Below, one piece after another: positions 28,706 through 50,232 of a stretch of DNA of 64,000 bases. The stretch comes from Posidoniimonas polymericola (lineage in GTDB: Bacteria > Planctomycetota > Planctomycetia > Pirellulales > Lacipirellulaceae). Below the pieces are notes generated by a model. It did no database searches and was not told the DNA's origin. It saw only the letters and a list, made by a program, of their open reading frames with translations. Position 1 is the stretch's first letter, and each line of letters opens with the position of its first letter. The stretch is from contig NZ_SJPO01000003.1 of NCBI RefSeq assembly GCF_007859935.1, positions 144,827 to 208,826 on the forward strand, written 5' to 3'. The position numbers were made by a program, and so were the translations under genes.

Positions 28706-29035
28706 CTACAACGCGGCCATCGCCTCGCACGCGTCGACGCAGTCCTGGCAGCTCTCGGCGCACTTCTGGCAGTGGTCGTGGTCGTGCTCGCGGCACTGGC
28801 CGGCGCAGTAACGGCAGACCTCTGCACAGAGCGTGCAGTACTTATCGACGAAGCGGCTGCTAGACGCGATTGCGCTGACGCACGCGTAGCACGCCTTGAC
28901 GCACTCGTAGCAACACGCGGGGCAGTCGTTGTCAGATTGTTTGGTCATCATTGCGGACAGGCACGCCTCGCAGTCGACGATGCACCGCTGGCAGGCTTCT
29001 AGACAGGCTGTACGCGGGTCGGTCATGGTGGCCAT
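28706..29035 (-). CDS. Cys-rich four-helix copper-storage-type protein
   Basis: 109 residues with about 17 Cys in CxxC and CxxxC spacings (ACLEACQRCIVDCEAC, CPACCYECVKACYAC, YCTLCAEVCRYCAGQC, CQKCAESCQDC). This is the DUF326/Csp3-type four-helix bundle whose Cys-lined core stores many Cu(I) ions. There is no signal peptide, so it is cytosolic, as in Csp3. AGGAG precedes the ATG at normal spacing. No copper regulator or pump is nearby. Confidence 0.9.
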   Translation of the reverse strand: MATMTDPRTACLEACQRCIVDCEACLSAMMTKQSDNDCPACCYECVKACYACVSAIASSSRFVDKYCTLCAEVCRYCAGQCREHDHDHCQKCAESCQDCVDACEAMAAL

Positions 29036-29232: not shown

Positions 29233-32200
29233 TCACTCGACGCCCTGTCTGGCGGATCCGGTCGCGAGCGAATTGAGCCAGGCGTCGCTCGGCGGGCCGT
29301 AGGGGCGGAACTTCTCGCTCTCGCCGGTCTCGTCGGTGTAGAAGAGGGCGCGGTGCTGGCGGAGGGTGCTGGCCGCCGGCGAGTCGAGCAGGTTCGAGCT
29401 GTCCGCCGCCGACATCTGGAACGCCACGCGGAGGCCGAACTCACGCATCGTCACGCGGTCGAACATCCGCGCCACCTGGTTGTAGCCGTCGCACCAGATG
29501 AGGGCGTGCACGCCGACCGACGGGCCGTTCTTGAGGATTTCCGTCAGGTGCTTGTCGGCGCTCTTCGGCTTGTCGTCGGACATCGAGAAGCTGAAGTCGT
29601 CCTCGCTCTTGCGGAGGTCGCGGAAGCGGCCGCCCGACCACACCACCAGGTAGACCGGCGGGTCGGCGGACTCGGGCTGCTCCTCGCGGCGGGCCACCTC
29701 GACCGCCAAGTCGGCGACGCCGGCGGCGGCGGTCTGAGGCGTCAGCACCTCGACCGGTCCCTGGTCCGAATCGGCGAGCGAATCGGCCACACGCGGCCAC
29801 ACGCCTAGCGAAATGTCGCCCGGGCGGCTGCCGTCGAGCACCACGAACCGCGCCCCAGGCGCCGACGCCCACAGCGACGCGACCGCGGTGGTGAGCACGC
29901 CGAGCGCGCCCTCTTCTTGCGGCCCGACGACCAGCAGGTTGGCTCCGGCGTGGCGGCCGAGCTCGGCCTGGGTGGGCGGCTTGATCGCGACCGCGGCGCC
30001 CAGGTACGCCGCGGGCGGGAGCTGGTAGGTTGTAGCCGGCTGGGTGACTTCGGGCTGGGCAGCTTCGGGCGCGGGCTCGCCCGACTTGCGCCGGTCGACC
30101 AGCGCTACCAGGTCGCGGTTGTTGAGCGGGTCGGCCGGGGCGTTGCCCTCGAACACGATCATCTCGCCGGCCGGTTCTTCGACCGCCTCGCGGTGCTCGT
30201 TGAGGACCCGCAGCCGCTCGGCCCGTTCGGCGTCGGGGAGCCAGACGACCTGGAACGGCTCGTTGGCGCTCGCCAGGCCGTTCTGGTCGTTGTAGATCGC
30301 CTCGCCGGGGCGGCTCAGGAACCGCGCGGCCTGGTTGCGTTCATCGGCCAGGATCAGGTGCGCGTCCGACTCGCTGCACTCCAGCGCGATCCGCACCGCG
30401 ATCTGCCCCAGCGTGCTGCGGGCGATGGAGTAGGCCCCGGCCAGCGTCTGGGTGCCGAGCACCACGTGCACGCCGAACGCCCGACCCTGACGCACCAGGC
30501 GGTCCATCAGCAGGCTCGCCTCCTGGGCCAGCCGGTCGTCCTCGACGAACAACTCCTGGAACTCGTCGATTACCAGCAGGATCCGCGGCATCGGCGTGTC
30601 GGGGTGGCCGGCGCGGAAGTCGGCCAGGTTTTGCGCGCCCGAGTCGCGGTACAGCTCGCCGCGGCGGGTCAGCTCGCGGTCGAGCCGCTCGAGCACGCTG
30701 AGGCCGAACTCGCGTTCGCTCTCGATCGCCACGACCCGCGCGTGCGGCAGCCGGTTGTTGGCGTAGCTCTTGAACTCGACGCCCTTCTTGAAGTCGACCA
30801 GGTAGAACTCGACCTCGTCGGGGCTGAAGTGCAGGGCGGCGCTAGTGATCAACGCGTGCAGGAAGGTCGACTTACCAGAACCGGTCTTGCCCGCGACCAG
30901 CAGGTGCTGCGAGGTCCCCTTGCCGAGCCGCACGTCCTGCAGCCGGTTGGCGCCCGCCCGGCCGACCGGCACCCGCAGCTCGTGCGAGCAGCTCTCCCGC
31001 CAGTAGCCGTCGTGCGGCGCGACCACCTCGAACGGCACCTCGACCCGCACGGCGTCCTTCGCCGCGGCGCCGGCCTGGCGGACTACCTCGACCATCCGCT
31101 CCGGCTGGGGCGGCTTGGCGGTCGTGATCGGCAGCCGCTCGAACGCCGGGTACCGCCACACGAACCGCTGCTGCTGGTCGTCCCACGACAGGTTGACCGC
31201 CTGGGAGGTGAGGTCCTCCATGTTGAAGTCGGTCGGCATCCGCTGCTTGCTGTCGATCACGCCCAGCACGTACACGCCGCACCGCGGGCCGCCGGTGGCG
31301 ATGCTCACCAGCCGCCGCGCGGCGGAGTCGCTGAAGTTCGTCGGGAAGCCGCTGACCACCACCACCTGGAACGGCTCGGCCACCTCGCCCGCCTGGGCGT
31401 TGTACTCGTGGATGCTGTCGTACTCGCTGCGGAGGTACTTCTGGATGACGGTCTCCATGTGGGTGGTGAGCCGCTGGAGCTGCGCGTCGATGTCGCGGGA
31501 CTCGCTCCAGATGCGGTCCGCGATGAGGTCCTCCTCGTAGTCGGCCAGGTGCATGAACGGGCTCAGCCCCTCGCCCAGCCCGACCGGGTCGAGCAGCGTC
31601 AGCCGGACCTTGCCGGGCGGCTGGCCGGTGAAGTAGCGGAGCGTCATCGCTTGCAGCAGCTCGACCGCCCGCTGCCGCGCGGGGCCCTCGGCGTTGATCA
31701 GCAGGTGCGGCTGCTCGGTCAGGGTGACCATCGTCGGCAGGGTGATCTGGGTCTCCGCGGGGCGGAGGTCGGGGTTCTCGGACAGGCCGTGCTTGATCGC
31801 CGCCAGGTCGAGCCGCGCCTCGCCAAAGGGCACGGCCAGCAGCGGGTCCTCGGGCTTCTCCCAGGCCAGGTAGTCCGCGGACGACCAGTTGGGGAACGCC
31901 TGCTCGCAGAACTCTCGCTGCGCGGCGAACTCGCTGCTGATCGCCGCCGTGCCGTCGAGCCACGCGTTGCGCATCGCCTGGTAGTCTTCGGTCCGCTGCT
32001 GCTCGAGCCGGTCCTCTTCGGCGGCGCACTGCTGCTCGGCGTCGCGGATGGTGATCTCACGCTCCTCGAGCAGCGCGGCGACCTTCGCGGTGTGCTCGCG
32101 GTCGAGCCGCTCGACCTCGGCCTCGTGGCTCTCGCGGCTCTCGGTCAGCCGGCGGGGGTACTCCTCGTCGATCCGGGCCCGCTCGGCGTCGTTCTTGGCC

Positions 32201-33294
32201 TTGGCAGCCTTCAGCTCGCGGGTGACCTGCTCCTGGATCGCTGCGAGGTCGGCGTCGCGGCGTTCGATCAGCAGCCGGGCGTGGTTCTCGCTCCGGGTGC
32301 GGGCCAGCGACTGGCTGTCGTTGATCTCACCGTAGGCCCGCCGCAGCAGCACGGCGGTCTCCTGGTAGCGCTCGTCGGTCTGCTTGCGGGCGAGCGGCTT
32401 GACCGCGAACCACAGCAACGCGAACAACGCCGCCATGACCGCCGCCCCCGCCCCCGCGCCGTAGCCCAGGCTCCGCTCCAGCGGCTCGGTCCGGAACAGC
32501 CACCACACCGCCGGCATCGTCAGCGCGAACGCGGTCAGCTCGATCCCCAGCAGGTTGCCCGGGTCGAACATCCGCGACAGCCAGCCGTCATACAAGTGCT
32601 GGGCCGCAACGCGGGCCGACTCGGAGTCGGCGGCGACCGATTCGATCCCCTGGTCGACCGACGGGTCGGTTGGCTCGCGGGCCGGATCGGCCTCGCCGGC
32701 GGCGGCCGGATCGATGTCGGTCGGGGCGACGCTGACCCAGCGGTCGGTGAGCACCTCGTCGGCGGCCTGGCGGGTCTCGTCAAGGTGCTTGCGGAGCTCG
32801 GCGAACCGGCGGTTGACCTCCTCCAGCCGCTCGCGGGGCTGCTCCTTCTGGGCGTCGTAGATCGAGCGGATCTGCCAGATCCCCTCGTCGAGCTTCTTCT
32901 GCGCAGCCTGCTTGATCTTCTTGCGGGCGGCCTCGATCTCGGTCCGCAGCTTCTGGTACTCCCAGCGCAGCGCGTTGGTCACCCGTTCGTAGTCGTCGTG
33001 GTCGGTCTCGCGTTGCCGCGCGTCGAGGTCGACCGCGGTGGCGAGCTCTTGCTCGTGCTCGAGTCGGGCCTGCTTGACGGTCTTGTCACGCTGCTTGCGG
33101 GCCGCCTTGAGGCCTGTCGTGTCGGCCTCGGCGATGCGCAGCTCCTCCTCGTGCCGCGTCTTGGCAAGACGCTGCAGGGTGCGCATCAGCTCGAGCTGGC
33201 GGCGCGTCGAGAGGGTCGGCTCGGCCAAGGGGGCTCCGGGGACGGCGAGGGTGGCGGGGGCGGGGAGAAGTGTCGTCAAGGTCTCATCCCTCAT
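29233..33294 (-). CDS. FtsK/SpoIIIE-family ATPase of a type VII-like module (EccC/EssC-like)
   Basis: 1353 residues. N-terminal coiled coil (about 25-200), two membrane helices (about 250-300: LLGIELTAFALTMPAVWWLF and AAVMAALFALLWFAV), a second coiled coil (305-460), then three ATPase-like modules. The first (about 520-700) has a degenerate P-loop at LLINAEGPARQRA; the second is canonical, with Walker A VAGKTGSGKST (about 798) and Walker B ILLVIDEFQEL (about 908); the third (about 1110-1350) has VGPQEEGAL in place of a P-loop. Two WXG100-type genes lie directly upstream, so a secretion motor is far more likely than a chromosome translocase. The canonical module being the middle one differs from mycobacterial EccC, where the first is active. 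Confidence 0.92.
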   Translation of the reverse strand: MRDETLTTLLPAPATLAVPGAPLAEPTLSTRRQLELMRTLQRLAKTRHEEELRIAEADTTGLKAARKQRDKTVKQARLEHEQELATAVDLDARQRETDHDDYERVTNALRWEYQKLRTEIEAARKKIKQAAQKKLDEGIWQIRSIYDAQKEQPRERLEEVNRRFAELRKHLDETRQAADEVLTDRWVSVAPTDIDPAAAGEADPAREPTDPSVDQGIESVAADSESARVAAQHLYDGWLSRMFDPGNLLGIELTAFALTMPAVWWLFRTEPLERSLGYGAGAGAAVMAALFALLWFAVKPLARKQTDERYQETAVLLRRAYGEINDSQSLARTRSENHARLLIERRDADLAAIQEQVTRELKAAKAKNDAERARIDEEYPRRLTESRESHEAEVERLDREHTAKVAALLEEREITIRDAEQQCAAEEDRLEQQRTEDYQAMRNAWLDGTAAISSEFAAQREFCEQAFPNWSSADYLAWEKPEDPLLAVPFGEARLDLAAIKHGLSENPDLRPAETQITLPTMVTLTEQPHLLINAEGPARQRAVELLQAMTLRYFTGQPPGKVRLTLLDPVGLGEGLSPFMHLADYEEDLIADRIWSESRDIDAQLQRLTTHMETVIQKYLRSEYDSIHEYNAQAGEVAEPFQVVVVSGFPTNFSDSAARRLVSIATGGPRCGVYVLGVIDSKQRMPTDFNMEDLTSQAVNLSWDDQQQRFVWRYPAFERLPITTAKPPQPERMVEVVRQAGAAAKDAVRVEVPFEVVAPHDGYWRESCSHELRVPVGRAGANRLQDVRLGKGTSQHLLVAGKTGSGKSTFLHALITSAALHFSPDEVEFYLVDFKKGVEFKSYANNRLPHARVVAIESEREFGLSVLERLDRELTRRGELYRDSGAQNLADFRAGHPDTPMPRILLVIDEFQELFVEDDRLAQEASLLMDRLVRQGRAFGVHVVLGTQTLAGAYSIARSTLGQIAVRIALECSESDAHLILADERNQAARFLSRPGEAIYNDQNGLASANEPFQVVWLPDAERAERLRVLNEHREAVEEPAGEMIVFEGNAPADPLNNRDLVALVDRRKSGEPAPEAAQPEVTQPATTYQLPPAAYLGAAVAIKPPTQAELGRHAGANLLVVGPQEEGALGVLTTAVASLWASAPGARFVVLDGSRPGDISLGVWPRVADSLADSDQGPVEVLTPQTAAAGVADLAVEVARREEQPESADPPVYLVVWSGGRFRDLRKSEDDFSFSMSDDKPKSADKHLTEILKNGPSVGVHALIWCDGYNQVARMFDRVTMREFGLRVAFQMSAADSSNLLDSPAASTLRQHRALFYTDETGESEKFRPYGPPSDAWLNSLATGSARQGVE

Positions 33295-33314
33295 GATAAC
33301 CGCCCGGCCGCCGG

Positions 33315-33539
33315 TCAGCTCTCAAGATCCCGCCGAGCCGAGTCCAGCAGCACCTGCATCCGCCCCGCCGCGTCCAGCGTATTCTTCACAATCGGCAGAA
33401 TCGGCTCGAGCCGCTCCCGGTAGAACGCCTCGCTGACCGAGTCGTTCCAGTGGTCGCCCGAGTCTTCCCACACCCGCATCAGCTCCTCCATCGCGTGGCG
33501 GATGCGGGCGGCGCCGGAGTGCAGGTCGGTGGGCTTCAT
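33315..33539 (-). CDS. Small helical WXG100-like protein
   Basis: 74 residues. Two helices flank a central turn with DHWNDSVSEAFYRERL, a W-x-D turn followed by Phe/Tyr as in WXG100 proteins. The chain is shorter than the usual ~100. It starts 3 bases after the stop of the 186-residue gene and ends 20 bases before the ATPase ATG, so all are one operon. It is a candidate secreted substrate or partner of the ATPase. Confidence 0.75.
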   Translation of the reverse strand: MKPTDLHSGAARIRHAMEELMRVWEDSGDHWNDSVSEAFYRERLEPILPIVKNTLDAAGRMQVLLDSARRDLES

Positions 33540-33542
33540 GGG

Positions 33543-34103
33543 TTACTCGTCCGGCGACGGCTCGATTGTTGCATCGGTCTGGTCAATACTCTCGACCGAT
33601 TGTCCGCTGACTGCGCCACTCGTGGTGCTCGAAATATACTCGTCGATCGCCACCACCAGCCGCTCGAGCACCGCCAGGGCGGCCGGGCCGTCGGCCTCTA
33701 GCACCGTGCCCAGGCCCGCCACGCGGCCGTGGTACTCGTGCATCTCGTGGGCGACCTCGCGGTTCCAGTGCTTCACCCGCTCCTGCTTCTCCTGGCAGTG
33801 CCGCAGGTGCTGCTGGGCGCGGTGCAGGGCCGCCTTCTGCTCGGTGCAGCTCGGGCGGTGGCTCTCACTGGCCTGAAATGTGAGGCACCGCTGCAATTCG
33901 TCCTTCGCCTCGCCGACCTTGTCGTACGCCCGGCGGACCCGCTCTTTCCAGTACGCCGGCCGGTCGTGCTCGAGCCACTCGATCGTGCGGCGGATCTCGG
34001 AGTTGAGTTCGTCGAGCCCGTCGGCCGACTGCTTGCAGAACGCCGCGAACGCCGTCTTGACGGCCAAGATGGCGTCGGTCGATTTAACGTTGGCGGGGGG
34101 CAT
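33543..34103 (-). CDS. Helical protein of the type VII-like operon
   Basis: 186 residues, almost all predicted helix with a long coiled coil (about residues 30-135) and AYWKERVRRAYDKVGEA containing another Trp turn. There is no signal peptide. The C-terminus is Ser/Thr/Asp-rich. It lies between the WXG100 gene and the small WXG100-like gene. It may be a longer WXG/LXG-type substrate or a chaperone; no family is confirmed. Confidence 0.75.
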   Translation of the reverse strand: MPPANVKSTDAILAVKTAFAAFCKQSADGLDELNSEIRRTIEWLEHDRPAYWKERVRRAYDKVGEAKDELQRCLTFQASESHRPSCTEQKAALHRAQQHLRHCQEKQERVKHWNREVAHEMHEYHGRVAGLGTVLEADGPAALAVLERLVVAIDEYISSTTSGAVSGQSVESIDQTDATIEPSPDE

Positions 34104-34128
34104 AGGAGTGCAGAGGAGTTGGCGGCGG

Positions 34129-34224
34129 TCAGATCACATTCATGAAGCGTCGTGGCTCCGCCGCGGAGAGCACCAACGGTTCTCCGAACAACGAGTTTGC
34201 CAGCTCATAGAGCCAGGGATTCAT
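34129..34224 (-). CDS. Possible 31-residue small protein in the type VII-like operon
   Basis: ATG at 34224 lies 4 bases after the TAG of the WXG100 gene; the frame ends at TGA 34129 and encodes 31 residues beginning MNPWLYELANSLFGEP and ending RRFMNVI. There is no separate ribosome binding site, but termination-reinitiation could translate it. It is amphipathic, with no known family. It fills most of the 125 bp gap before the 186-residue gene. It may be chance. Confidence 0.35.
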   Translation of the reverse strand: MNPWLYELANSLFGEPLVLSAAEPRRFMNVI

Positions 34225-34228
34225 TGCG

Positions 34229-34501
34229 CTACCGCTGCTGCAGGTATTCCTCGATCCGCTCTGCCTTGCGCATCAGGAACGGCGCGTGCTCGTTGGTGAT
34301 CTCCACGTAGCGGGCGATCGCCTTCATCTGATCCTCGAACTCCTCGGTGAACTTCTTGTGCTCCTGGTCGCGCCAGCTGGCCGACAGCGAGTGGAGCTGG
34401 GCGGCGAGGCTCGTCATCCGCTCTTCCAGCTCGGTGTTGAACTTCTTCAGGTTGTTGGCGAACCGGCGCAGCTCGGCCGGGTCGACGATTGCCTGGGCCA
34501 T
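34229..34501 (-). CDS. WXG100-family protein
   Basis: 90 residues: helix, turn, helix. The turn ASWRDQEHKKF places Trp at residue 43 with Asp in the Gly position of WxG, followed by the Phe typical of the family. There is no signal peptide. The C-terminal YxxxD/E secretion signal of mycobacterial pairs is not present (the chain ends EEYLQQR). WXG100 proteins are the substrates of type VII systems and travel as four-helix dimers. It is the first gene of the operon that ends with the EccC-like ATPase. Confidence 0.9.
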   Translation of the reverse strand: MAQAIVDPAELRRFANNLKKFNTELEERMTSLAAQLHSLSASWRDQEHKKFTEEFEDQMKAIARYVEITNEHAPFLMRKAERIEEYLQQR

Positions 34502-34646: not shown

Positions 34647-37600
34647 CTACCCCGACTTGCGGTGGAGCTGCTTCCAGTGCTTGGCCAGCGAGTCGACGGT
34701 CTTGTGGATCTGCTCGTCGGTGTGGCTGCTGGTGATGAAGAACCGCAGCCGCGCGGCCGACTCCTCGACCGCCGGGTACATGATCGGCTGCACGTTGATC
34801 CCGTCGGCGAACAGACGCTGGCTGAGCTCGAGCGACTGCAGCGAGTTGCCGATAATCACCGGCACAATCGGGGTGCCCGCGCTCATGCCGGTGTTCAGGC
34901 CCGCCTTCTTGGCGAGCTTGAGGAACAGCTCGGAATTGTGACGCAGCCGATCGACCCGCTCGGGCTTCTCCTTGACCAGCTTCAGCGAGGCGAGCGCCGA
35001 CGCCGCGTTGGCCGGCGACAACCCGACGCTGAACACGAAGCCGGGCGCGGTGTACTTGAGGTACTCGATAATCTCGCGGCACGCGGCGATGTAGCCGCCG
35101 CAGCTCCCCAGCGACTTGCTCATCGTGCCCATCCAGAGGTCGACCTCGCGGGGATCGACGCCGAAGTGCTCGCTCATGCCGCGGCCGGTGGGGCCCATCG
35201 TGCCGAGCGAGTGCGCCTCGTCGACCATCAGGTAGGCCTTGTGCTCCTTCTTGAGCCGGACGAACTCCGGCAGCGGGCTGAAGTCGCCGTCCATGCTGTA
35301 GACGCCCTCGACCACGATCAGCACCTGTCGGTACTCGCCGCGGTAACGCTTGAGCAGCTCCTCGCAGGCGCCGGCGTCGTTGTGGGCGAAGGCCCTGCGG
35401 GTGGCGCCCGACAGCTTGCAGCCCTGCACGATGCTGTTGTGCGAGAGCGCATCGTGCAGGATCAGGTCGCCGGGGCCGTACATGTGGCCGATGACCGACT
35501 CGTTAGTCGCGTGCCCGCCCACCATCACGATCGCGTCCTCGACGCCGAGGAAGCCGGCGATCGCCTGCTCCAGCTCGCGGTGCAGCGGCTTCTCGCCCGA
35601 CACCAGCCGGCTGGCGCTGACGCTGGTGCCGTAGCGGTCGACCGAATCACGGGTCGCCTCCTGCACATCGGGCTCGCCCGACATCGCCAGGTAGTTGTAG
35701 CTGCACCAGTTGATGTACTCCTTGCCGCCGATCACGGTGCGGTCGTTGGTGACCCCCTCGTGCTGCGTGAAGTACGGGTTGGTCAGGCCGGCCGACTCGG
35801 CCAGCTTGAGGCTCGACCGGAGTTTCAGGTACTCGGGCGACTGCGAGAACTGGTAGTCGCCCGGCAGCACCTCGCGCTCGGCGGGTCCGCCCTCGGAGAG
35901 CAGGTGCTCCTCGACCGCCCGCACGACGTCGCGGCAGGTGTTCATGCCGATGATCGCTTCTTCGCTGAAGCGGCCGCCGAACTCGTCCTCCAGCCCGGCG
36001 ACAATCTCCATCCGCTCGAGCGAGTCGAGACCCATCGCGGTGATCTCGGTCTCGAGGGTCGCTGCGGAGGCTCGTTCCTTGGCCACCTCGCGGACGATCT
36101 TCATCGTACGCTCGATGGTCGAGCCAGAGGGCTTGCGTTCCTCCTGGACCGCCGGCGCGGCGGCCGGCTGCTGGGCCTCGGCCTTGCGGCGTTCGATGCG
36201 GTCGGACCCCCGCTTGCGGTGGACGCTGAGCCCGTCGCCCAGGCTCCACTCCGCCACCACGTTTAGCTTGCCGGCGAGGTACTGGTCGCGGCAGGCGTGG
36301 CGTTGGATCTTGCCGCTGGAAGTCTTGGGGATCGTGTTGGGGCGGAGGAACACAATCGCCGCCGGCGCGACGTCGTGGATCGCCGTGACATGGTGCCGCA
36401 CGGCGTCGAGGATCTCCTCGAACGGCAGGTCCCGCTGGCGGCCCATCTCCTGCAGCACCACCAGCTTTTCCTCGCCGTCTTCGCCGATGGTGACCGCCGC
36501 GCCGGACGACTTCGGGAGCGAGGGGTGCGAGTCCTCGACCGTCAGCTCGATGTCTTGCGGGTAGTGGTTGGCTCCGCGGATGATAATCAGGTCCTTCAGC
36601 CGCCCCGTAACGAACAGCTCACCCTCGTCGACAAAGCCAAGGTCGCCGGTCCGCAGGTACGGGCCGTCCCCCTCGGTGGTGCGGGCGGCGAAGGTCTCCT
36701 GGGAGAGCGCCTCACGCTTCCAGTAGCCCTGGGCGACGCTCTCGCCCTTAACCCAGATCTCGCCGACGCGGCGGTCGGGGCAGGGGACGAGCGACTCGGG
36801 GTCGACGATCGCGACCTCGTGGCTCAGGTAAGACTCGCCCGATCCGACCACGTCAAGCGCCTCGGCGGCGCCCGCGGTCGCCGGCTTGGCCTGGCCCGCC
36901 TTCAGGGCCTCGATGTCGTAGCTCTTGACGGTCGGCGGTTGCCACTTGGTCTTGCCCGCGACCATTAGCGTCGCCTCGGCCAGACCGTAGCAGGGGTAGA
37001 AGGACTCAAAGCGGAAGCCGCACTCGGCGAAGGCGTCGGCGAAGCGGCGCATAGTGGACGCGCGGACCGGCTCGGCGCCATTGAACGCGACCTCCCACTG
37101 CGTCAGGTCGAGGCCCCGCTTTTCTTCGTCGGTGATGCGGTCGAGGCACAGCTCGTAGGCGAAGTTCGGCCCGCCGCTGATCATGGCGCCCGTGTCCGAT
37201 AGGGTCCGCAGCCAGCGGATCGGTTTCTGCAGGAAGTGCGTCGGCGTCATCAAGGTGTTGTGCCGCCCAAAGTAGATCGGCTGGATGATGCCGCCGATCA
37301 GGCCCATGTCGTGGTACAGCGGCAGCCACGTCATGCCTTCGCCGGCGCGGGACATGCTGAATCCCTCGCAGATCACCTTGGTGTTGTGCAGCAGGTTGCC
37401 GTGGCTCAGCATCACGCCCTTGGGGGTGCCGGTCGAGCCAGAGGTGTACTGCAGAAAGGCCAGCGTGGAGGGGTCGACCTGTGGGTCCTCCCAAGCGTCT
37501 GCCTGGTCGAGGGCGAGCTCGTCGGTGCACTGCCAGGGGATGGCCCGCAGGTCGGCCTCGTCCTGGATCATCGGCTCGACGCGGTCGAACACGCCGTGGG

Positions 37601-38051
37601 TGGTGAGCGCAACGCCGGGCGTCGCGTCCGCGACGATCGATTTGATGCGCAGCAGGTTGCGGTTGCGGCGCGGCGGGTAGGCCGGCACCGCCGTCACCCC
37701 CGCGTACAGGCACCCGAAGAACGCGGCAATGAACTCCAGCCCCGACGGGTACAGCAGCAGGGCCCGCTCGCCGGCCATGCCACGCGACTGCAGGTGAGCG
37801 GCGATCGCCCGCGCCCGCTCGTCGAGTTGCCCGTAGGTGAGGTGCTGGCGATCGAAGTCGCCGTCGACGAGGTAGCTGAAGGCGCGCTGGTACGGGTGGC
37901 TTTCGGTCCGCTCGCGGAGCAGGCCGACCAGGTCGGCCGACTCGCAAACAGACTGGAATCGAGGGTGTTCGGTCTTCGACAAGGCGAAAAGTCTCCTCCC
38001 GCGGCCATTGGTTTGCCGGGGTGGCAAAGGGGGGGGCTGGCGGGCATTCAT
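34647..38051 (-). CDS. Fused fatty-acyl-AMP ligase, acyl carrier protein and alpha-oxoamine synthase
   Basis: 1134 residues in one frame. Residues about 40-620 are a fatty-acyl-AMP ligase: LQYTSGSTGTPKGVMLSHGN (near 205), TWLPLYHDMGLIGG and GRLKDLIIIRGANHYPQDIE. Residues about 640-720 form an acyl carrier protein with the phosphopantetheine Ser in MGLDSLERMEIV (near 673). Residues about 740-1134 are a PLP enzyme of the KBL/serine palmitoyltransferase family with SYNYLAMSG, VDEAHSLGTMG and the PLP Lys in GTMSKSLGSCGG (near 978). The logic is activation of a fatty acid, loading on the carrier, and condensation with an amino acid such as serine to a 3-keto sphingoid-like lipid. It ends 146 bp before the WXG100 gene. 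Confidence 0.93.
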   Translation of the reverse strand: MNARQPPPLPPRQTNGRGRRLFALSKTEHPRFQSVCESADLVGLLRERTESHPYQRAFSYLVDGDFDRQHLTYGQLDERARAIAAHLQSRGMAGERALLLYPSGLEFIAAFFGCLYAGVTAVPAYPPRRNRNLLRIKSIVADATPGVALTTHGVFDRVEPMIQDEADLRAIPWQCTDELALDQADAWEDPQVDPSTLAFLQYTSGSTGTPKGVMLSHGNLLHNTKVICEGFSMSRAGEGMTWLPLYHDMGLIGGIIQPIYFGRHNTLMTPTHFLQKPIRWLRTLSDTGAMISGGPNFAYELCLDRITDEEKRGLDLTQWEVAFNGAEPVRASTMRRFADAFAECGFRFESFYPCYGLAEATLMVAGKTKWQPPTVKSYDIEALKAGQAKPATAGAAEALDVVGSGESYLSHEVAIVDPESLVPCPDRRVGEIWVKGESVAQGYWKREALSQETFAARTTEGDGPYLRTGDLGFVDEGELFVTGRLKDLIIIRGANHYPQDIELTVEDSHPSLPKSSGAAVTIGEDGEEKLVVLQEMGRQRDLPFEEILDAVRHHVTAIHDVAPAAIVFLRPNTIPKTSSGKIQRHACRDQYLAGKLNVVAEWSLGDGLSVHRKRGSDRIERRKAEAQQPAAAPAVQEERKPSGSTIERTMKIVREVAKERASAATLETEITAMGLDSLERMEIVAGLEDEFGGRFSEEAIIGMNTCRDVVRAVEEHLLSEGGPAEREVLPGDYQFSQSPEYLKLRSSLKLAESAGLTNPYFTQHEGVTNDRTVIGGKEYINWCSYNYLAMSGEPDVQEATRDSVDRYGTSVSASRLVSGEKPLHRELEQAIAGFLGVEDAIVMVGGHATNESVIGHMYGPGDLILHDALSHNSIVQGCKLSGATRRAFAHNDAGACEELLKRYRGEYRQVLIVVEGVYSMDGDFSPLPEFVRLKKEHKAYLMVDEAHSLGTMGPTGRGMSEHFGVDPREVDLWMGTMSKSLGSCGGYIAACREIIEYLKYTAPGFVFSVGLSPANAASALASLKLVKEKPERVDRLRHNSELFLKLAKKAGLNTGMSAGTPIVPVIIGNSLQSLELSQRLFADGINVQPIMYPAVEESAARLRFFITSSHTDEQIHKTVDSLAKHWKQLHRKSG

Positions 38052-38208: not shown

Positions 38209-39798
38209 CTAGTGGACGAACTCGGCGCCGAAGGTCAGGCCGCTGATAAAGATGTTCTGCTCGCCGGTTTGCCCAATGCCAAAGTCGGGAGCGTTGTACT
38301 GGACCAGCTGAGCCGCCCGCGAAATGTTGTCCACGTAGGTCGCGTTGAAGCCGCCCTTGAGGGCCAGCGACCGCGTCAGCTGGTACTTGACCTCCGCCCG
38401 CATCTCGATGAACGGGGTGAAGTCGTCCGAACGCTTTCCGTACCGTGAGTAGGTAGGCTGGAGGTACAGCAGGTTGTTGAGGCCGCCGGGCATGGCGTCG
38501 TCGCCGAAGCCGTTGGTCTGGTCGATGTTCTGGATGTTGTAGCCGAACATGAACCGCGTATCGATCGACGTGTTCCACTTGCCGACCTGGCGGGCGGCCT
38601 TGACGCGGACCTGAGGACCGACAATCGAGTTCTCCGACTGCGTGATCGTGAACACCCGTCCGGCGATGTCCGTCAGGCCATCGAAACGGAAGTCGTCGTT
38701 CATACGGAAGTACCGCACGCCGTAGCCAAAGCTGAACTGCGAGTTCTGGTGCTTGGCCTTCATGTGACGGTTGTTGAGCGTGTGGGTCTTCATCAGCTCG
38801 ATGCCGTCGGTTTCCGTGTGGTTGCGGACCTGGAGCGTGTTGAACCGGAAATTGAACTCGTGCAGGTCGCCGAAGTCTCGTGCGATTGCGACCACCAGGA
38901 ACTCGCCCGGGTTGGCGGGGTCCGGGGCGAGCAAGAACAGAAAGTTCCCGCCGTTGCCGTTAATGTCGTCCGCAATGTTGTCGTAGAGGATCAGGGTGCC
39001 GTCAGGTCCCACGACCGTTATCAACCCGCCGTCGAGCGTGTCGTCGGCGTTGAGGTCCCCGACGATGTCGTCAAAGTAGTCGCGGTAGCCCAGCATGAAA
39101 CCTTCAGGGGTATTGAAGTTGACATGCACGCTGCCGAAGCCGTTGAGCGTGGGGGCCAGCAGGATTTCTAGCGGGTTGGGGTTCTGGCTCTGCCCAGGAG
39201 GGGGGGGGCCAAAACCAGTAATGTTGGTCCCCTCGTTGAAGTCGATGACGCCGTCGCCGTCGATGTCGATTCCGTCGTTGCCCAGGTCGAGCGGGACGAA
39301 CCCATACACCTCAGAGGTCGTGTAGCTGGGCCCATCAAGGACGCCGACCGTGTAGGCGATCTGATCCTTGAAGTAGCCGAACTCGTAGCGATCACCCCAC
39401 CCGAAACCAGCGTAGGGAGGGGCGTCCTGGATCCCGTTGATGATCGTGTAGGGCTGAGGCTGGAGCCCCGGCGGCAGCTGGTTCAGGATGGGGGCCGAGT
39501 CGTCCTGGGGCTGGCGGGGGTAGATTTCCTCCGCGAGGTCCGTGACGCCCGGCGCGCCGATGGTGGTGCGGTCTCCGGTGAAAGCCCAGTAGAGCTTGTC
39601 GTAGCCGAAGATGTAGCCGCAGCTGCGGTCGACCGGCATGCAGTCCAGGTCGAGGTCGACTGGCTCGAAGTACCGCAGGTCTGAGGCACCCTCGCAGAAC
39701 GGACCGCAATGGTCCTCGTACTGCGCGAGGCTGGCCGCCCAGGGCGACGCCAGCAATGCCGTGGCTGTAAGAAGTGTTCTGATTCGGATGGGGAACAT
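38209..39798 (-). CDS. Outer-membrane beta-barrel protein, planctomycete BBP7-like
   Basis: 529 residues from the ATG at 39798, preceded by AGAGGA. The signal peptide ends near AASLAQ. The first region (YEDHCGPFCEG, LYWAF) resembles planctomycete BBP7-type proteins (Pfam PF07585), and the chain ends with alternating strands (FISGLTFGAEFVH) with a near-terminal aromatic, typical of porin-like barrels. Loops contain calcium-motif-like DIDGDGVIDFNEG and GDLNADDTLDGG. It is probably an abundant surface barrel. Its leader holds a terminator-like hairpin at 40102-40143. Confidence 0.72.
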   Translation of the reverse strand: MFPIRIRTLLTATALLASPWAASLAQYEDHCGPFCEGASDLRYFEPVDLDLDCMPVDRSCGYIFGYDKLYWAFTGDRTTIGAPGVTDLAEEIYPRQPQDDSAPILNQLPPGLQPQPYTIINGIQDAPPYAGFGWGDRYEFGYFKDQIAYTVGVLDGPSYTTSEVYGFVPLDLGNDGIDIDGDGVIDFNEGTNITGFGPPPPGQSQNPNPLEILLAPTLNGFGSVHVNFNTPEGFMLGYRDYFDDIVGDLNADDTLDGGLITVVGPDGTLILYDNIADDINGNGGNFLFLLAPDPANPGEFLVVAIARDFGDLHEFNFRFNTLQVRNHTETDGIELMKTHTLNNRHMKAKHQNSQFSFGYGVRYFRMNDDFRFDGLTDIAGRVFTITQSENSIVGPQVRVKAARQVGKWNTSIDTRFMFGYNIQNIDQTNGFGDDAMPGGLNNLLYLQPTYSRYGKRSDDFTPFIEMRAEVKYQLTRSLALKGGFNATYVDNISRAAQLVQYNAPDFGIGQTGEQNIFISGLTFGAEFVH

Positions 39799-40446
39799 CG
39801 GCTTCCTCTGGCGCTCTATGTTCGCGGAACCGGGGCGCAACCTATCGCGCCGCCGGCAGACCAGTTCTCTCTGTGCCGGTAGTATCGGGTGCGCCGGACG
39901 TGCCAGTTGAGTAACTCTGGTAAACCCTAACGAAAATCCGGGTCGTTCCAGCTAGCACTGCTGGCCGCCGATCCGCCGAGAGAACGCGAGCGACTGCTCT
40001 TCCGCCTGCAATCACCCCGGCGGGCGAAGCGAGCCAGGCAGAACGTTCAGAAGACGAGAGGCTCCGCAATTGATGGGCGCGGGCGTCTCGATAAGCGGGC
40101 ATAAAAAAAGCCCCCGCAGGTGGGGCAGAGACCTGCGGGAGCCGGGCGTCGAGCGTTGAGCTATCGACAATACGAATGTTAAAGAAAGGGGAAGGCGTCT
40201 GCAAGTTTCTATCCCAGAAAATCTGCCTTTTCCTACAAATAGCAGTCAAACGGGGCAAAAAAGGCCTCCCTCGCCTGACTTTGAATGCGCGGTGCCGCAA
40301 TTCCCGTGACTGCGGATGACCGATCGGGGACGCACGCAGCTCACCCTGTGCCAGCATTGCCGCGGGCCGGTCTGGGGCGTAGGTTTCTGTTGTCGAGCTA
40401 AACTGCCAATCGCACGCCATTTGCGCCCCGAGCCCCAGGTTCTCCC
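39799..40446. other. 648 bp divergent intergenic region with a leader or small RNA candidate
   Basis: It lies between the divergent barrel (minus) and TraB-family (plus) genes. No ORF is supported. It holds a minus-strand promoter-like pair and an intrinsic terminator (40102-40204). The part from 40150 to 40260 is noticeably AT-rich. Confidence 0.5.
40102..40204 (-). ncRNA. Candidate small RNA or attenuated leader
   Basis: On the minus strand, TTGCAG (40199-40204) and TAACAT (40176-40181) are 17 bases apart. About 65 bases downstream an intrinsic terminator follows: CCCGCAGGT facing ACCTGCGGG with a T-run at 40103-40109. No minus-strand gene lies between promoter and terminator. Either a ~65-nt RNA is made, or it is the leader of the barrel gene whose ATG lies 305 bases further on. 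Confidence 0.4.
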
Positions 40447-47697: not shown

Positions 47698-50142
47698 CTA
47701 CCGACGGCGGCGGCTGCAGATGAGCAGCAGGCCGACGGCCGCGGCGGCGGCACTGGTCGGTTCGGGGACGGCGGCGAAGCGGGCGGCGACCTCTTCCGGC
47801 GTGAGGGCCGTGTTGAGGAACGAGAACCTCGCGAGGTCGCCCTCGAAGCCGGCGGTGCCGAACGGGGCGAGGCCGGGGCCGTTGATGCCGCCCAGCACGG
47901 TGGCGACCATGCCGATGCCGGCGTTGCCCGGGCCGTCCCAGTCGACGTTGCCGCCGCCGATGACGTCGTGCGATTGCGAGGCCAACACGCCGTTGACGTA
48001 CAGGCTGGCGATCTGCCCGCCGGCGTCGGTCTCGTCGACCACGGCCACCAGGTGCACGAACTCATCGAACACGTCGGCGTCGGCCAGGCTGGCGGTGGTC
48101 ACCAGCGCCTTGCCGGCGCCGTTGTCCGCCAGGCGCAGCCGCACCTCGGGGTTGGCGTCGCCGCCGCCGAGGGTGATCGACAGGCCGCGGGCGCCGCCGC
48201 CGCTCTCCAGCAGCACTTGGCCGTTGTCGAGGTCGGACGAGCGGAACCAGAACTCGAAGCTGGCCGAGTCGTCGGTGTCAGGCGTGATGGTCAGCGAGCT
48301 GGCGTTGGGGCTGTCCTCCGACACGTGGAAGAAGCTCCGCAGCAGGCCGCCGCCGCACGAGAAGCGGTAGGCGTGCGAGCCGAGGCCCTGGGCGTCGATC
48401 TCGACCAGCTCGACCGACCCGCGGTTGGTCTCGATCAGCATCTGCTCACGCGGGCGGTTGTCGACGTCGGTCACCGAGCGCCAGGCCGGGCCCTCGAAGC
48501 CGGTGTTGCGCGAGTTGTCGCTGGCGTTCCAGCGGATGTCGACCGGCGCGGCGATCTCGTACGGTAGCGACGCGTCGGAAGTCTGCACCCAGGCGTCGAA
48601 GCGGGTCTGCATCGAGGCCAGCTGGCCCGCGTAGGCCGGGTTGTTGGCCAGGTTGCGGGCGTCGGCCGGGTCGATGGTTTCCCAGGTGTCGTTGGGGCCG
48701 CTGATGGTGCGGTTGAGGTCGAACAGGTAGTCGGTCGAGGCGCCGCCGACGCCGTAGATCCGCACGAACTTGAACGAGCCGTCCCCCTCAACCATCGACG
48801 ACATCGGCGTCGTGTCGCGGACGTAGTGGGGGAAGTGGATGAAGATCTCGCCGTTGGCGCCCGAGCCCCGCACCAGCGAGGCCTCGCCGCTGGCCAGCTC
48901 GCCGCCGTTGTGCAGCACCGAGCTGAAGTCGGCGCTGTCGGCGTACTTGGGGAGCGGCGCGGTGGAGCCGGCCAGCGAGGTGACCGTGGCGTACAGGTCG
49001 GTCGAGACCACCGGCACGGCGCTCACCGTGTTGGCCGCGACGCCGGGGCCGCGGACGATCATCGGCACGCGTACGCCGCCCTCCCAGGAGGTGGCCTTCT
49101 CGTCGTACAGCGGCAGGTTGTTGGTGTTCTGCAGCAGCGCGCCGTTGTCGGACGTGTAGATCACGTAGGTCGTGTCCTTGAGCATCATGCCCGGGTTGCG
49201 CGGGTCGGGCGTGTTGGCGAGGTAGTCCAAGATCTGCCCGACGCCCGTGTCGAGGTCCTCGGTCATGCCGGCGTACTTGACGCGGTCGGTCGAGTTCCCG
49301 CCGGGGTGCACCACGCCGGGGTTGGTGGCGAGCTTGTCCTGGTACTTGGCCTGCGAGTCGGGCAGGGTGACCGGCGCGTCGTGCACGGCGTAGTGCGACA
49401 CCTGCAGGTAGAACGGCGCGTTGTCGCCGCTCGCGCCGGCGTGGGCGTCCATGAAGTCGATGGCGCGGCTGCTGAGCGAGAAGATCTCCTTCGGGTCGCG
49501 CGCGGAGTTGACCGGGTTGTTGGCCCGGGCGCCGTCGTGCACGTCGTAGCCGAAGTCGCTGGGGTCGCCCGCCCGGTAGGGGACCGCCCCGCCGGCGACC
49601 GACGGCTTGACGGCCGGGGTGGTCTGGTGCCACTTGCCGAGGTGGGCCGTGACGTAGCTGGCGTCGGCGGCCTTGATGCGTTGGGCGATCGACTGCACCT
49701 CGGCGACCGGGAGCCGCGGCACGGTGAGCGGCTCCATCAGGTCCGTGCCGGACGGCGCCGAGTTGTTGTACAGGTCGTCGCGGCCGACGATGTCGGTCAG
49801 GTTGATCGACGCCGGGTTGAGGCCCAGCTGGATCGAGGCCCGCGTCGGCGAGCAGTTGGGCGCCGCGGCGTACGCCTGGCGGAACCGCATGCCCTGCGTG
49901 GCGAGGGCGGCCAGGTTGGGGGTCTCGTAGAAGTCGCTGCCCGAGTTTGGCCCGACCACGTTCGGGTCCATCGGCGTCGACAGGCCGTTCCAGCCCTGGT
50001 CGTCGGACAGGATCACGACGAAGTTCGGCTTGATCTGGCCGCGGGCGGCGGGCGCCGCCAGGCCAATCGTCAGCAGCGGCAGCGCCAACGCAGGGAACGC
50101 CAGGAGCGGCGTCCCCCACAGTCGCAATGGATGGGTCTTCAT
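47698..50142 (-). CDS. Secreted sulfatase with LamG-like domain and PEP-CTERM tail
   Basis: 814 residues from the Met at 50142, chosen because a clear signal peptide follows (LLAFPALALPLLTIGLAAPAARG); Mets at 50151 and 50223 are alternatives. The sulfatase domain opens NFVVILSDDQG (metal Asp pair) and carries CSPTRAS, whose Cys (residue about 97) is the formylglycine precursor. Residues about 600-790 form a LamG-like jelly roll (FVHLVAVVDETDAGGQIASLYVNG). The end VPEPTSAAAAAVGLLLICSRRRR is a PEP-CTERM sorting signal. It probably removes sulfate from algal polysaccharides at the cell surface. It needs a separate formylglycine-generating enzyme, not seen here. Confidence 0.93.
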   Translation of the reverse strand: MKTHPLRLWGTPLLAFPALALPLLTIGLAAPAARGQIKPNFVVILSDDQGWNGLSTPMDPNVVGPNSGSDFYETPNLAALATQGMRFRQAYAAAPNCSPTRASIQLGLNPASINLTDIVGRDDLYNNSAPSGTDLMEPLTVPRLPVAEVQSIAQRIKAADASYVTAHLGKWHQTTPAVKPSVAGGAVPYRAGDPSDFGYDVHDGARANNPVNSARDPKEIFSLSSRAIDFMDAHAGASGDNAPFYLQVSHYAVHDAPVTLPDSQAKYQDKLATNPGVVHPGGNSTDRVKYAGMTEDLDTGVGQILDYLANTPDPRNPGMMLKDTTYVIYTSDNGALLQNTNNLPLYDEKATSWEGGVRVPMIVRGPGVAANTVSAVPVVSTDLYATVTSLAGSTAPLPKYADSADFSSVLHNGGELASGEASLVRGSGANGEIFIHFPHYVRDTTPMSSMVEGDGSFKFVRIYGVGGASTDYLFDLNRTISGPNDTWETIDPADARNLANNPAYAGQLASMQTRFDAWVQTSDASLPYEIAAPVDIRWNASDNSRNTGFEGPAWRSVTDVDNRPREQMLIETNRGSVELVEIDAQGLGSHAYRFSCGGGLLRSFFHVSEDSPNASSLTITPDTDDSASFEFWFRSSDLDNGQVLLESGGGARGLSITLGGGDANPEVRLRLADNGAGKALVTTASLADADVFDEFVHLVAVVDETDAGGQIASLYVNGVLASQSHDVIGGGNVDWDGPGNAGIGMVATVLGGINGPGLAPFGTAGFEGDLARFSFLNTALTPEEVAARFAAVPEPTSAAAAAVGLLLICSRRRR

Positions 50143-50232
50143 TAGGTGCATCAGAGGAATGGGGTTGGGTTGGGGAGACGCCGGGGCCGCCGGTTGAGTC
50201 GGCCCCGGCGCGTTGAGGTCCATGCGACGCGG

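What the first reader, a model, noticed from the sequence alone, without database searches (positions are those of the whole stretch)
29233..34501. Minimal type VII (ESX-like) secretion module in a diderm bacterium
Seen: one minus-strand run of a WXG100 protein (90 aa), a 186 aa helical protein, a 74 aa WXG100-like protein and a membrane FtsK/SpoIIIE ATPase, with gaps of 125, 3 and 20 bases. Known: WXG100 plus EccC/EssC is the core of type VII secretion. No EccB, EccD, EccE, mycosin, EsaA, EssA or EssB gene is present. Inference: a reduced module that must cross or serve a diderm envelope, perhaps with unrelated outer parts.
Basis: partly seen in the sequence, partly recalled or inferred. Interest (0 to 1): 0.88.

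Follow-up and report, generated by a model that had tools for sequence, protein, structure and literature searches.

The report
Four-gene export motor in planctomycetes

Summary
In detail: four minus-strand genes (WXG100, 186 aa, 74 aa, ATPase) with the stated gaps. The ATPase looks like EccC/EssC: two transmembrane segments, an EccC-like DUF domain, one active FtsK/SpoIIIE domain, one degenerate domain; it does not group with the genome's FtsK. The 186-aa protein is modelled as two helices of 70 and 77 residues; it and the 74-aa protein are probably WXG100-like (weak evidence).

The module is widespread. In 148 genomes of the class the ATPase occurs in 107 and the partners in 106, 105 and 105 of these, in none of the other 41; in two chromosomes all four persist at least 0.47 Mb apart. 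The one neighbour profiled the same way is independent of them.

Prior art exists: a 2012 footnote (Zhang) and the CoCoNuT paper on soluble, nuclease-bearing relatives. New here: membrane anchoring, toxin-less substrate, class-wide retention, one WXG100 beside two motor sets in 18 genomes. On a Helicobacter plasmid the 186-aa slot holds a nuclease with an immunity gene, so I read the slot as the substrate. Export across the inner membrane is inferred, not shown.

The parts
34229..34501 (-). WXG100 protein, 90 aa, with W-R-D instead of W-x-G at the bend
   Evidence: PF06013 3.3e-11; W43, R44, D45 invariant in 38 sequences; best solved relative HP0062 of H. pylori, 6.3e-10, residues 1-88 on 1-88
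33543..34103 (-). 186-aa helical protein, proposed substrate (effector slot, no toxin domain)
   Evidence: AlphaFold2 two helices 10-79 and 87-163, mean pLDDT 89.2; the same slot holds a WHH nuclease followed by a SUKH immunity gene on a Helicobacter plasmid
33315..33539 (-). 74-aa divergent WXG100-like partner, W-x-D motif
   Evidence: W31 and D33 invariant in 39 sequences; one family member of three scanned (L078) matches PF06013 at 5.2e-4, below cut-off
29233..33294 (-). membrane-anchored EccC/EssC-like FtsK/SpoIIIE motor ATPase, 1353 aa
32497..32553 (-). first transmembrane segment of the ATPase (about residues 248-266)
   Evidence: hydropathy 1.53; pair present in 40 of 42 homologues by a fixed cut
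32401..32457 (-). second transmembrane segment (about residues 280-298)
   Evidence: hydropathy 2.11
31054..31932 (-). membrane-proximal degenerate NTPase, EccC DUF-like domain (residues 455-747)
   Evidence: VIA-align to EccC5 DUF 8rin, Z 15.3, rmsd 4.1, 229 aligned; ESX-3 6umm Z 15.1, rmsd 3.9, 236 aligned
30247..30996 (-). the only FtsK/SpoIIIE domain with Walker A and B (residues 767-1016)
   Evidence: alignment, 72% mean identity of residues 766-1060 among 38 loci; Pfam stretch 772-951
30868..30891 (-). Walker A, residues 802-809
   Evidence: all eight residues invariant in 41 sequences
29236..30027 (-). C-terminal degenerate NTPase domain (residues 1090-1353), no Walker A by eye in the 18 rows shown

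Best explanation
It is a solo-ATPase, type-VII-like export module of the cytoplasmic membrane. The ATPase is inserted by a transmembrane hairpin and should work as an EccC-like ring in which only the middle domain burns ATP. The near-invariant WXG100 (WRD type) is the common core component. The 186-aa long hairpin is the substrate, or an adaptor, occupying the slot that carries a toxin in a relative. The 74-aa WXG-like protein is its targeting partner. The motor pushes the helical complex across the inner membrane. Shown: architecture, conservation, co-occurrence of the four genes. Inferred: hexamer, complex formation, export, direction. Unknown: any route through the outer membrane, and the purpose. 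I take the planctomycete form to be a housekeeping derivative of a toxin-delivery module.
For: EccC/EssC-type motor: EccCa 3.1e-32 against FtsK 1e-9; TcEccC first in Foldseek, 1.8e-30, best FtsK 7.5e-11; DUF-domain match. Transmembrane pair in 40 of 42 homologues. One functional unit: all four in 103 of 148 genomes, no partner in the 41 without the ATPase. Retained when dispersed: in G020 and G133, single-contig chromosomes, every pair is at least 0.47 Mb apart. Effector slot: the Helicobacter plasmid protein in the 186-aa position ends in a WHH/colicin-DNase domain (1.1e-11 and 9.8e-9) and is followed by SMI1/KNR4 (1.6e-6). The Rhodococcus slot protein is the top non-family match of the 186-aa profile among 5518 ORFs (1.2e-4). 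WXG100 shared: in 18 of 18 genomes of one family with two ATPases, two 186-aa and two 74-aa genes, one WXG100 was found. WXG100 is the most constrained partner, 67% mean identity against 39% for the two others.
Against: No secretion data. The canonical C-terminal YxxxD/E signal (recalled) is absent: WXG100 ends mostly EEYLxQR/K. The loop between the two transmembrane windows is short, 13 residues here, so almost nothing reaches the periplasm. Relatives on plasmids (Caballeronia, Helicobacter, two Rhodococcus, Deinococcus) show no transmembrane pair; three of them have one window of 1.6-1.7, which I read as a buried strand, so export by this motor type is not established there. G001 has the ATPase, 186-aa and 74-aa genes but no detectable WXG100 (320 contigs, 98% complete), and second cassettes lack their own WXG100, so WXG100 may be dispensable for some sets. 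Profile-profile links among the three small families are weak (probability 21% or less), the Caballeronia slot protein scores at noise level (E 0.23) and the Helicobacter one is not among the listed matches. No outer-membrane part was found.
Confidence: 0.55

Rival explanations
1. An intracellular system, not an exporter: the ATPase ring remodels or moves a coiled-coil/WXG complex, or nucleic acid, at the membrane, as proposed for soluble CoCoNuT-associated relatives.
For: The five plasmid relatives show no transmembrane pair; the CoCoNuT paper says that for this reason a different mechanism appears likely; the poorly conserved flanks of the transmembrane pair (23-26% identity) may only be spacers.
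Against: The planctomycete ATPases do carry the transmembrane pair, a feature of export motors EccC/EssC, and a toxin plus immunity pair sits in a relative.
Confidence: 0.2
2. Envelope or membrane-organising complex: WXG100 and the long hairpins assemble at the inner face of the membrane and are not exported.
For: WXG100 is very conserved, which I would not expect of a secreted protein (67% mean identity); no YxxxD/E motif; mostly one set per genome.
Against: An FtsK/EccC-type motor domain with invariant Walker residues is hard to explain by scaffolding alone.
Confidence: 0.12
3. Decaying remnant of a polymorphic-toxin delivery system that lost its toxin.
For: Toxin and immunity genes sit at the same slot in a Helicobacter relative and are missing here.
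Against: Active-domain identity of 72% and four-way retention in 103 of 148 genomes, even when dispersed, argue for purifying selection; dN/dS was not measured.
Confidence: 0.05
4. An FtsK-type DNA translocase with unrelated small neighbours.
For: The active domain also matches FtsK, and VIA-align gives single FtsK and TcpA domains Z as high as or higher than EccC domains (23.7 against 22.4).
Against: EccCa profile far better; EccC DUF domain matched; the genome's own FtsK groups with a Paenibacillus plasmid protein and a protein beside dptG, not with this clade (the tree is unrooted); three small partners co-occur.
Confidence: 0.05

Closest known systems
Solo WXG plus YueA-like ATPase, 'mobile versions of T7SS' (Zhang et al. 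2012, PMC3482391, table footnote 6; passages read)
   Same: WXG with an ATPase of three HerA/FtsK domains, only the middle active; planctomycetes are named.
   Different: The footnote gives no gene set and calls them mobile. Here a defined four-gene set, its ATPase in 107 of 148 genomes of the class, with no toxin.
EssC-like ATPase / WXG100 operon of Type III-A CoCoNuTs (PMC11090510, passages read); the Caballeronia plasmid L056 looks like this
   Same: Three-domain ATPase active in the middle only, two WXG100 proteins (one lacking WxG), a coiled-coil protein.
   Different: Soluble ATPase, coiled coil fused to a nuclease, a further small protein, VWA genes; none of these here, but a transmembrane pair is.
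HP0062 gene cluster of Helicobacter pylori (PMC3397514, passages read)
   Same: WXG100 hairpin with WRD at the bend, clustered with an FtsK/SpoIIIE-domain protein; best solved match.
   Different: Its operon was not compared here; a plasmid of a cat Helicobacter carries a nuclease toxin and immunity gene in a related operon.
T7SSb (EssC, EsxA, LXG effector with Lap targeting factors) and T7SSa (EccC)
   Same: WXG100, EccC/EssC-like motor with transmembrane pair and DUF domain; small helical partners beside a long helical domain, as in LXG/Lap (PMC9600955, search listing only; PDB 8gmh at rank 50, E 0.47, not significant).
   Different: No YukC, no convincing YukD, one NTPase domain fewer, no toxin, diderm host.

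Membership tests
Type VII secretion system (T7SSa/T7SSb) | WXG100 family protein | tested here: met
   PF06013 3.3e-11, but WRD instead of WXG; below the NCBIfam TIGR03930 cut-off (34.3 against 44.85 bits)
Type VII secretion system (T7SSa/T7SSb) | EccC/EssC ATPase: transmembrane pair, DUF domain, FtsK-type domains in tandem | tested here: met
   but far below the NCBIfam full-length cut-offs for EccCa, EssC, EccCb
Type VII secretion system (T7SSa/T7SSb) | four NTPase domains (PMC11217815; I count DUF plus three) | tested here: not met
   DUF plus two domains by model and alignment
Type VII secretion system (T7SSa/T7SSb) | YukC/EssB (T7SSb) | tested here: not met
   no match in the own genome, control rang in B. 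subtilis
Type VII secretion system (T7SSa/T7SSb) | YukD/EsaB ubiquitin-like protein | tested here: inconclusive
   one sub-threshold hit, 21.5 bits against 27, on another contig
Type VII secretion system (T7SSa/T7SSb) | EccB (T7SSa) | tested here: inconclusive
   no match, but the control rang nowhere
Type VII secretion system (T7SSa/T7SSb) | EccD, EccE, mycosin, EsaA, EssA | not tested
Type VII secretion system (T7SSa/T7SSb) | C-terminal YxxxD/E signal (recalled) | tested here: not met
   WXG100 family ends mostly EEYLxQR/K, read by eye; that the motif is not universal in T7SSb is recalled
Type VII secretion system (T7SSa/T7SSb) | substrates found outside the cytoplasm | not testable with these tools
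   needs fractionation
Solo WXG / three-domain ATPase operon (Zhang 2012; CoCoNuT-associated) | three NTPase domains, only the middle one with Walker motifs | tested here: met
Solo WXG / three-domain ATPase operon (Zhang 2012; CoCoNuT-associated) | two WXG100-type proteins, one without WxG | tested here: inconclusive
   WXG100 clear; the 74-aa protein is WXG-like by W-x-D and weak hits of family members
Solo WXG / three-domain ATPase operon (Zhang 2012; CoCoNuT-associated) | coiled-coil fused to nuclease, plus following small gene | tested here: not met
   the 186-aa protein is a helical hairpin with a low-confidence tail and no Pfam domain
Solo WXG / three-domain ATPase operon (Zhang 2012; CoCoNuT-associated) | ATPase without transmembrane segments | tested here: not met
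   pair present here and in 40 of 42 homologues
Solo WXG / three-domain ATPase operon (Zhang 2012; CoCoNuT-associated) | ATPase in one clade with plasmid solo ATPases | tested here: met
   14 rows, 96/92.9 in a tree of 23
Solo WXG / three-domain ATPase operon (Zhang 2012; CoCoNuT-associated) | mobile | tested here: inconclusive
   distribution and synteny argue against it (ATPase in 107 of 148 genomes of the class, usually one; shared FAAL-type, BBP7 and enolase neighbours in Pirellulales-type loci), but gene and species trees were not compared
FtsK DNA translocase | groups with FtsK in the motor-domain tree | tested here: not met
   own FtsK pairs with a Paenibacillus plasmid protein 98/93, outside this clade; tree unrooted

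The most novel reading that the evidence does not exclude
Planctomycetes carry a true inner-membrane type VII exporter stripped to four genes, in which a single solo ATPase does what EccB-E or EsaA/EssA/EssB assist elsewhere, exporting a conserved non-toxic helical substrate as a housekeeping function in a diderm cell, with one WXG100 serving two motor/substrate pairs in some families. It would be a further T7SS type beyond T7SSa-j and the membrane-bound counterpart of soluble toxin-carrying relatives.
Probability: 0.45. Interest if true: 0.78.

Novelty: new variant of a known kind. Interest (0 to 1): 0.64.

Why it matters
Type VII secretion is described mainly in Bacillota and Actinomycetota, and a 2013 review (PMC3796261, passages) states that it is not found in archetypal LPS diderms. 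A four-gene set kept almost all-or-none over a class of diderm bacteria, even where its genes are scattered, defines a candidate minimal system, gives a toxin-free one to study, and makes the question whether a solo EccC-like motor can export testable in planctomycetes for which gene deletion is published (PMC6952346, passages).

Tried and rejected
Rejected: functional link to the ligase/PLP-enzyme fusion directly upstream (34647-38051). It belongs to a cluster of neighbours seen in 18 of 48 loci (printed in part), but 19 of the 41 cassette-negative and 37 of the 107 cassette-positive genomes have a match at E<=1e-100 (some to one half only), Fisher p 0.19. The BBP7 porin (38209-39840) as outer-membrane part: a neighbour in 13 of 48 loci, but no such gene recurs around the dispersed genes; its own distribution was not profiled. 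A Ser/Thr kinase as a fifth component in Gemmata-type loci: a linkage cluster suggested it, but the genes directly upstream are not uniform, so I make no claim.

Led nowhere: Foldseek for the 186-aa model (no hit at E<=0.001); PDB sequence search with the 74-aa and 186-aa profiles (best E 0.17 and 0.09); hhalign between the three small families. The motor-domain tree is unrooted and has long branches, so it cannot say whether the solo clade is sister to EccC/EssC or to FtsK; in the first tree the own FtsK was missing. Of 342 plasmid records with a motor match I opened 13. A phylum-wide sample found the ATPase in 22 of 157 genomes, so outside the class it is patchy. No model of the N-terminal 454 residues was made; 'coiled coil' is read from the sequence by eye. 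Paper search was badly put (one term could not match) and only its top 5 of 1,458 were seen.
Full report
What is there. The four genes, their order, strand and gaps are as described. The 90-aa protein is a WXG100 (PF06013 3.3e-11), the ATPase an FtsK/SpoIIIE protein (2.5e-34); the two others have no Pfam or NCBIfam family at E<=0.001. A 1168-aa open frame antisense to the ATPase gene (29917-33423, +) I take for a shadow frame.

The motor. Its best NCBIfam profile is EccCa (3.1e-32), then EssC and EccCb, with FtsK at 1e-9; all lie far below the curated full-length cut-offs. Its best solved relative by sequence is the T. curvata EccC. The model of residues 455-1353 (pLDDT 84.8, pTM 0.73, 41 sequences) returns EccC first by Foldseek (1.8e-30), EssC next, FtsK at 7.5e-11. 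VIA-align places model residues 4-293 on the EccC DUF domain (8rin Z 15.3, rmsd 4.1, 229 aligned; 6umm Z 15.1; 7npt Z 15.0), while single FtsK and TcpA domains score as high as or higher than EccC domains for the motor parts. Walker A and B residues are kept in the middle domain only, which has 72% mean identity among 38 loci, against 22-26% for the transmembrane and flanking regions. A transmembrane pair precedes the DUF domain in 40 of 42 homologues by a fixed hydropathy cut; L018 just misses it and L037 has none. So: flank, TM pair, flank, DUF, active domain, degenerate domain.

The small proteins. WXG100 is the most conserved partner (67% mean pairwise identity in 38 loci; the 186-aa and 74-aa families 39% each; whole ATPase 46%). 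Its bend reads W-R-D, invariant in 38 sequences, and its closest solved relative is HP0062 of H. pylori (6.3e-10), for which a review records the same WRD, a hairpin reported as dimer, and clustering with an FtsK/SpoIIIE protein (PMC3397514, passages). The 74-aa family has an invariant W-x-D (39 sequences); of three members from dispersed loci scanned, one matches PF06013 at 5.2e-4, below cut-off, and two hit the WXG100 profile at 3.5e-4 and 6.6e-4 among 5518 ORFs. The 186-aa protein is modelled as two helices of 70 and 77 residues with a low-confidence tail. Direct profile comparisons of the three families are not significant (probability at most 21%), so common descent of all three is a reading, not a result.

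One functional unit. In 148 genomes of the class at least 90% complete, the ATPase (E<=1e-60) is in 107, the 186-aa protein (E<=1e-5) in 106, WXG100 (E<=1e-4) in 105 and the 74-aa protein (E<=1e-3) in 105; all four are in 103, and no partner occurs in the 41 genomes without the ATPase. The misses: G137 (1430 contigs) lacks the 186-aa protein and WXG100; G001 lacks WXG100; G141 and G147 lack the 74-aa protein, which is near the detection limit in their relatives. In two single-contig chromosomes, G020 and G133, all four lie apart, the nearest pair 0.48 and 0.63 Mb; in G002, G028, G072 and G135 they are partly split. Around the dispersed genes of four genomes (about 6 kb each side) nothing recurs in three or more loci except shadow frames of the genes themselves and sulfatase-like ORFs (named by eye, about 25% identity, at differing places) near WXG100 in three of four. 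In 18 genomes of family f11 there are two ATPases, two 186-aa and two 74-aa genes but one WXG100; a PF06013 search in nine of these 18, plus G001, found no second WXG100 beside a cassette, only weak hits inside frames of 427 or more residues elsewhere. Genomes are not independent, so I give no corrected probability; presence and absence inside families f2, f8 and f12 points to repeated joint loss or gain.

What it is related to. A plasmid search gave 342 records with a motor match, of which I opened 13. Five of these motors (Caballeronia, Helicobacter, two Rhodococcus, Deinococcus) form with nine planctomycete rows one side of a branch with support 96/92.9 in a tree of 23, apart from EccC/EssC rows and from the own FtsK with two other rows. 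These five show no transmembrane pair; three have one hydrophobic window of 1.6-1.7. Their operons suggest what the 186-aa slot is: on the Helicobacter plasmid the order is WXG100-like, a 340-aa protein ending in a WHH/colicin-DNase nuclease, an SMI1/KNR4 immunity protein, a 77-aa protein, the ATPase; on the Caballeronia plasmid WXG100, 436 aa, 113 aa, 76 aa, ATPase, then CARF, VWA, PP2C and kinase genes. The 436-aa protein has no Pfam match; I read its C-terminal part by eye as nuclease-like. The Rhodococcus slot protein is the best non-family match of the 186-aa profile (20.2 bits, E 1.2e-4); the Caballeronia one is at noise (E 0.23) and the Helicobacter one is not listed. The 39 planctomycete members are about 172-247 aa long, tail included, so none carries a further large domain there.

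What is known. The closest text is a table footnote of Zhang et al. 2012 naming planctomycetes among lineages with solo WXG and an ATPase of which only the middle domain is active, called mobile (PMC3482391, passages). The CoCoNuT paper describes the soluble, nuclease-carrying form and doubts canonical export for lack of transmembrane segments; it cites Anantharaman 2012 for a stand-alone mobile form (PMC11090510, passages). Garrett 2024 names T7SSa-T7SSj in Gram-positives (PMC11217815, passages). Listings of six searches in the open-licence library (26 and 88 shown in part) gave nothing else that I recognised on planctomycete WXG100 systems; I opened passages of few of the listed papers, and most subscription papers are not covered.

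Verdict. The four-gene unit and its EccC-like, membrane-anchored motor are well supported. That it exports the 186-aa protein across the inner membrane is my best reading at about 0.55. It is a new variant of a known kind: the anchor answers the objection raised against soluble relatives, and the toxin-free form kept across the class suggests a housekeeping role. Vertical inheritance is inferred from distribution and synteny, not from a comparison of trees. How anything would pass the outer membrane is open; no conserved outer part was found.

Noticed in passing
window 34647-38051 (-): 1134-aa fusion read by eye as a fatty-acyl-AMP ligase joined to a PLP-dependent oxoamine-synthase-like domain; a neighbour of the cassette in a cluster of 18 loci but independent of it in distribution.
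   Followed up: yes
window 38209-39840 (-): BBP7 beta-barrel porin (PF07585, 5.5e-8), a neighbour in 13 of 48 loci.
   Followed up: partly
window 28706-29035 (-): Cysteine-rich protein of 109 aa matching DUF326 repeats (2.6e-5), just downstream of the ATPase gene.
   Followed up: partly
window 29917-33423 (+): Open frame of 1168 aa antisense to the ATPase gene; probably a shadow of a GC-rich coding frame.
   Followed up: no
L060, L062, L063: Second cassettes of family f11: ATPase, 186-aa and 74-aa homologues with no WXG100-like ORF within 1.2 kb upstream.
   Followed up: partly
L058: Rhodococcus plasmid module with TerD-family genes beside it and a 314-aa slot protein whose C-terminal part could be a toxin (by eye; no Pfam match).
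   Followed up: partly
L080: Deinococcus plasmid operon: ATPase followed by two proteins of 88 and 94 aa with sub-threshold WXG100 matches, a 326-aa and a 144-aa protein.
   Followed up: partly
L052: Contig labelled Latescibacterota with a partial ATPase homologue and none of the three small genes in 5 kb upstream; label not verified.
   Followed up: no
window 47698-50223 (-): Sulfatase-like protein of 841 aa with a C-terminal tail read by eye as a PEP-CTERM-type sorting signal.
   Followed up: no
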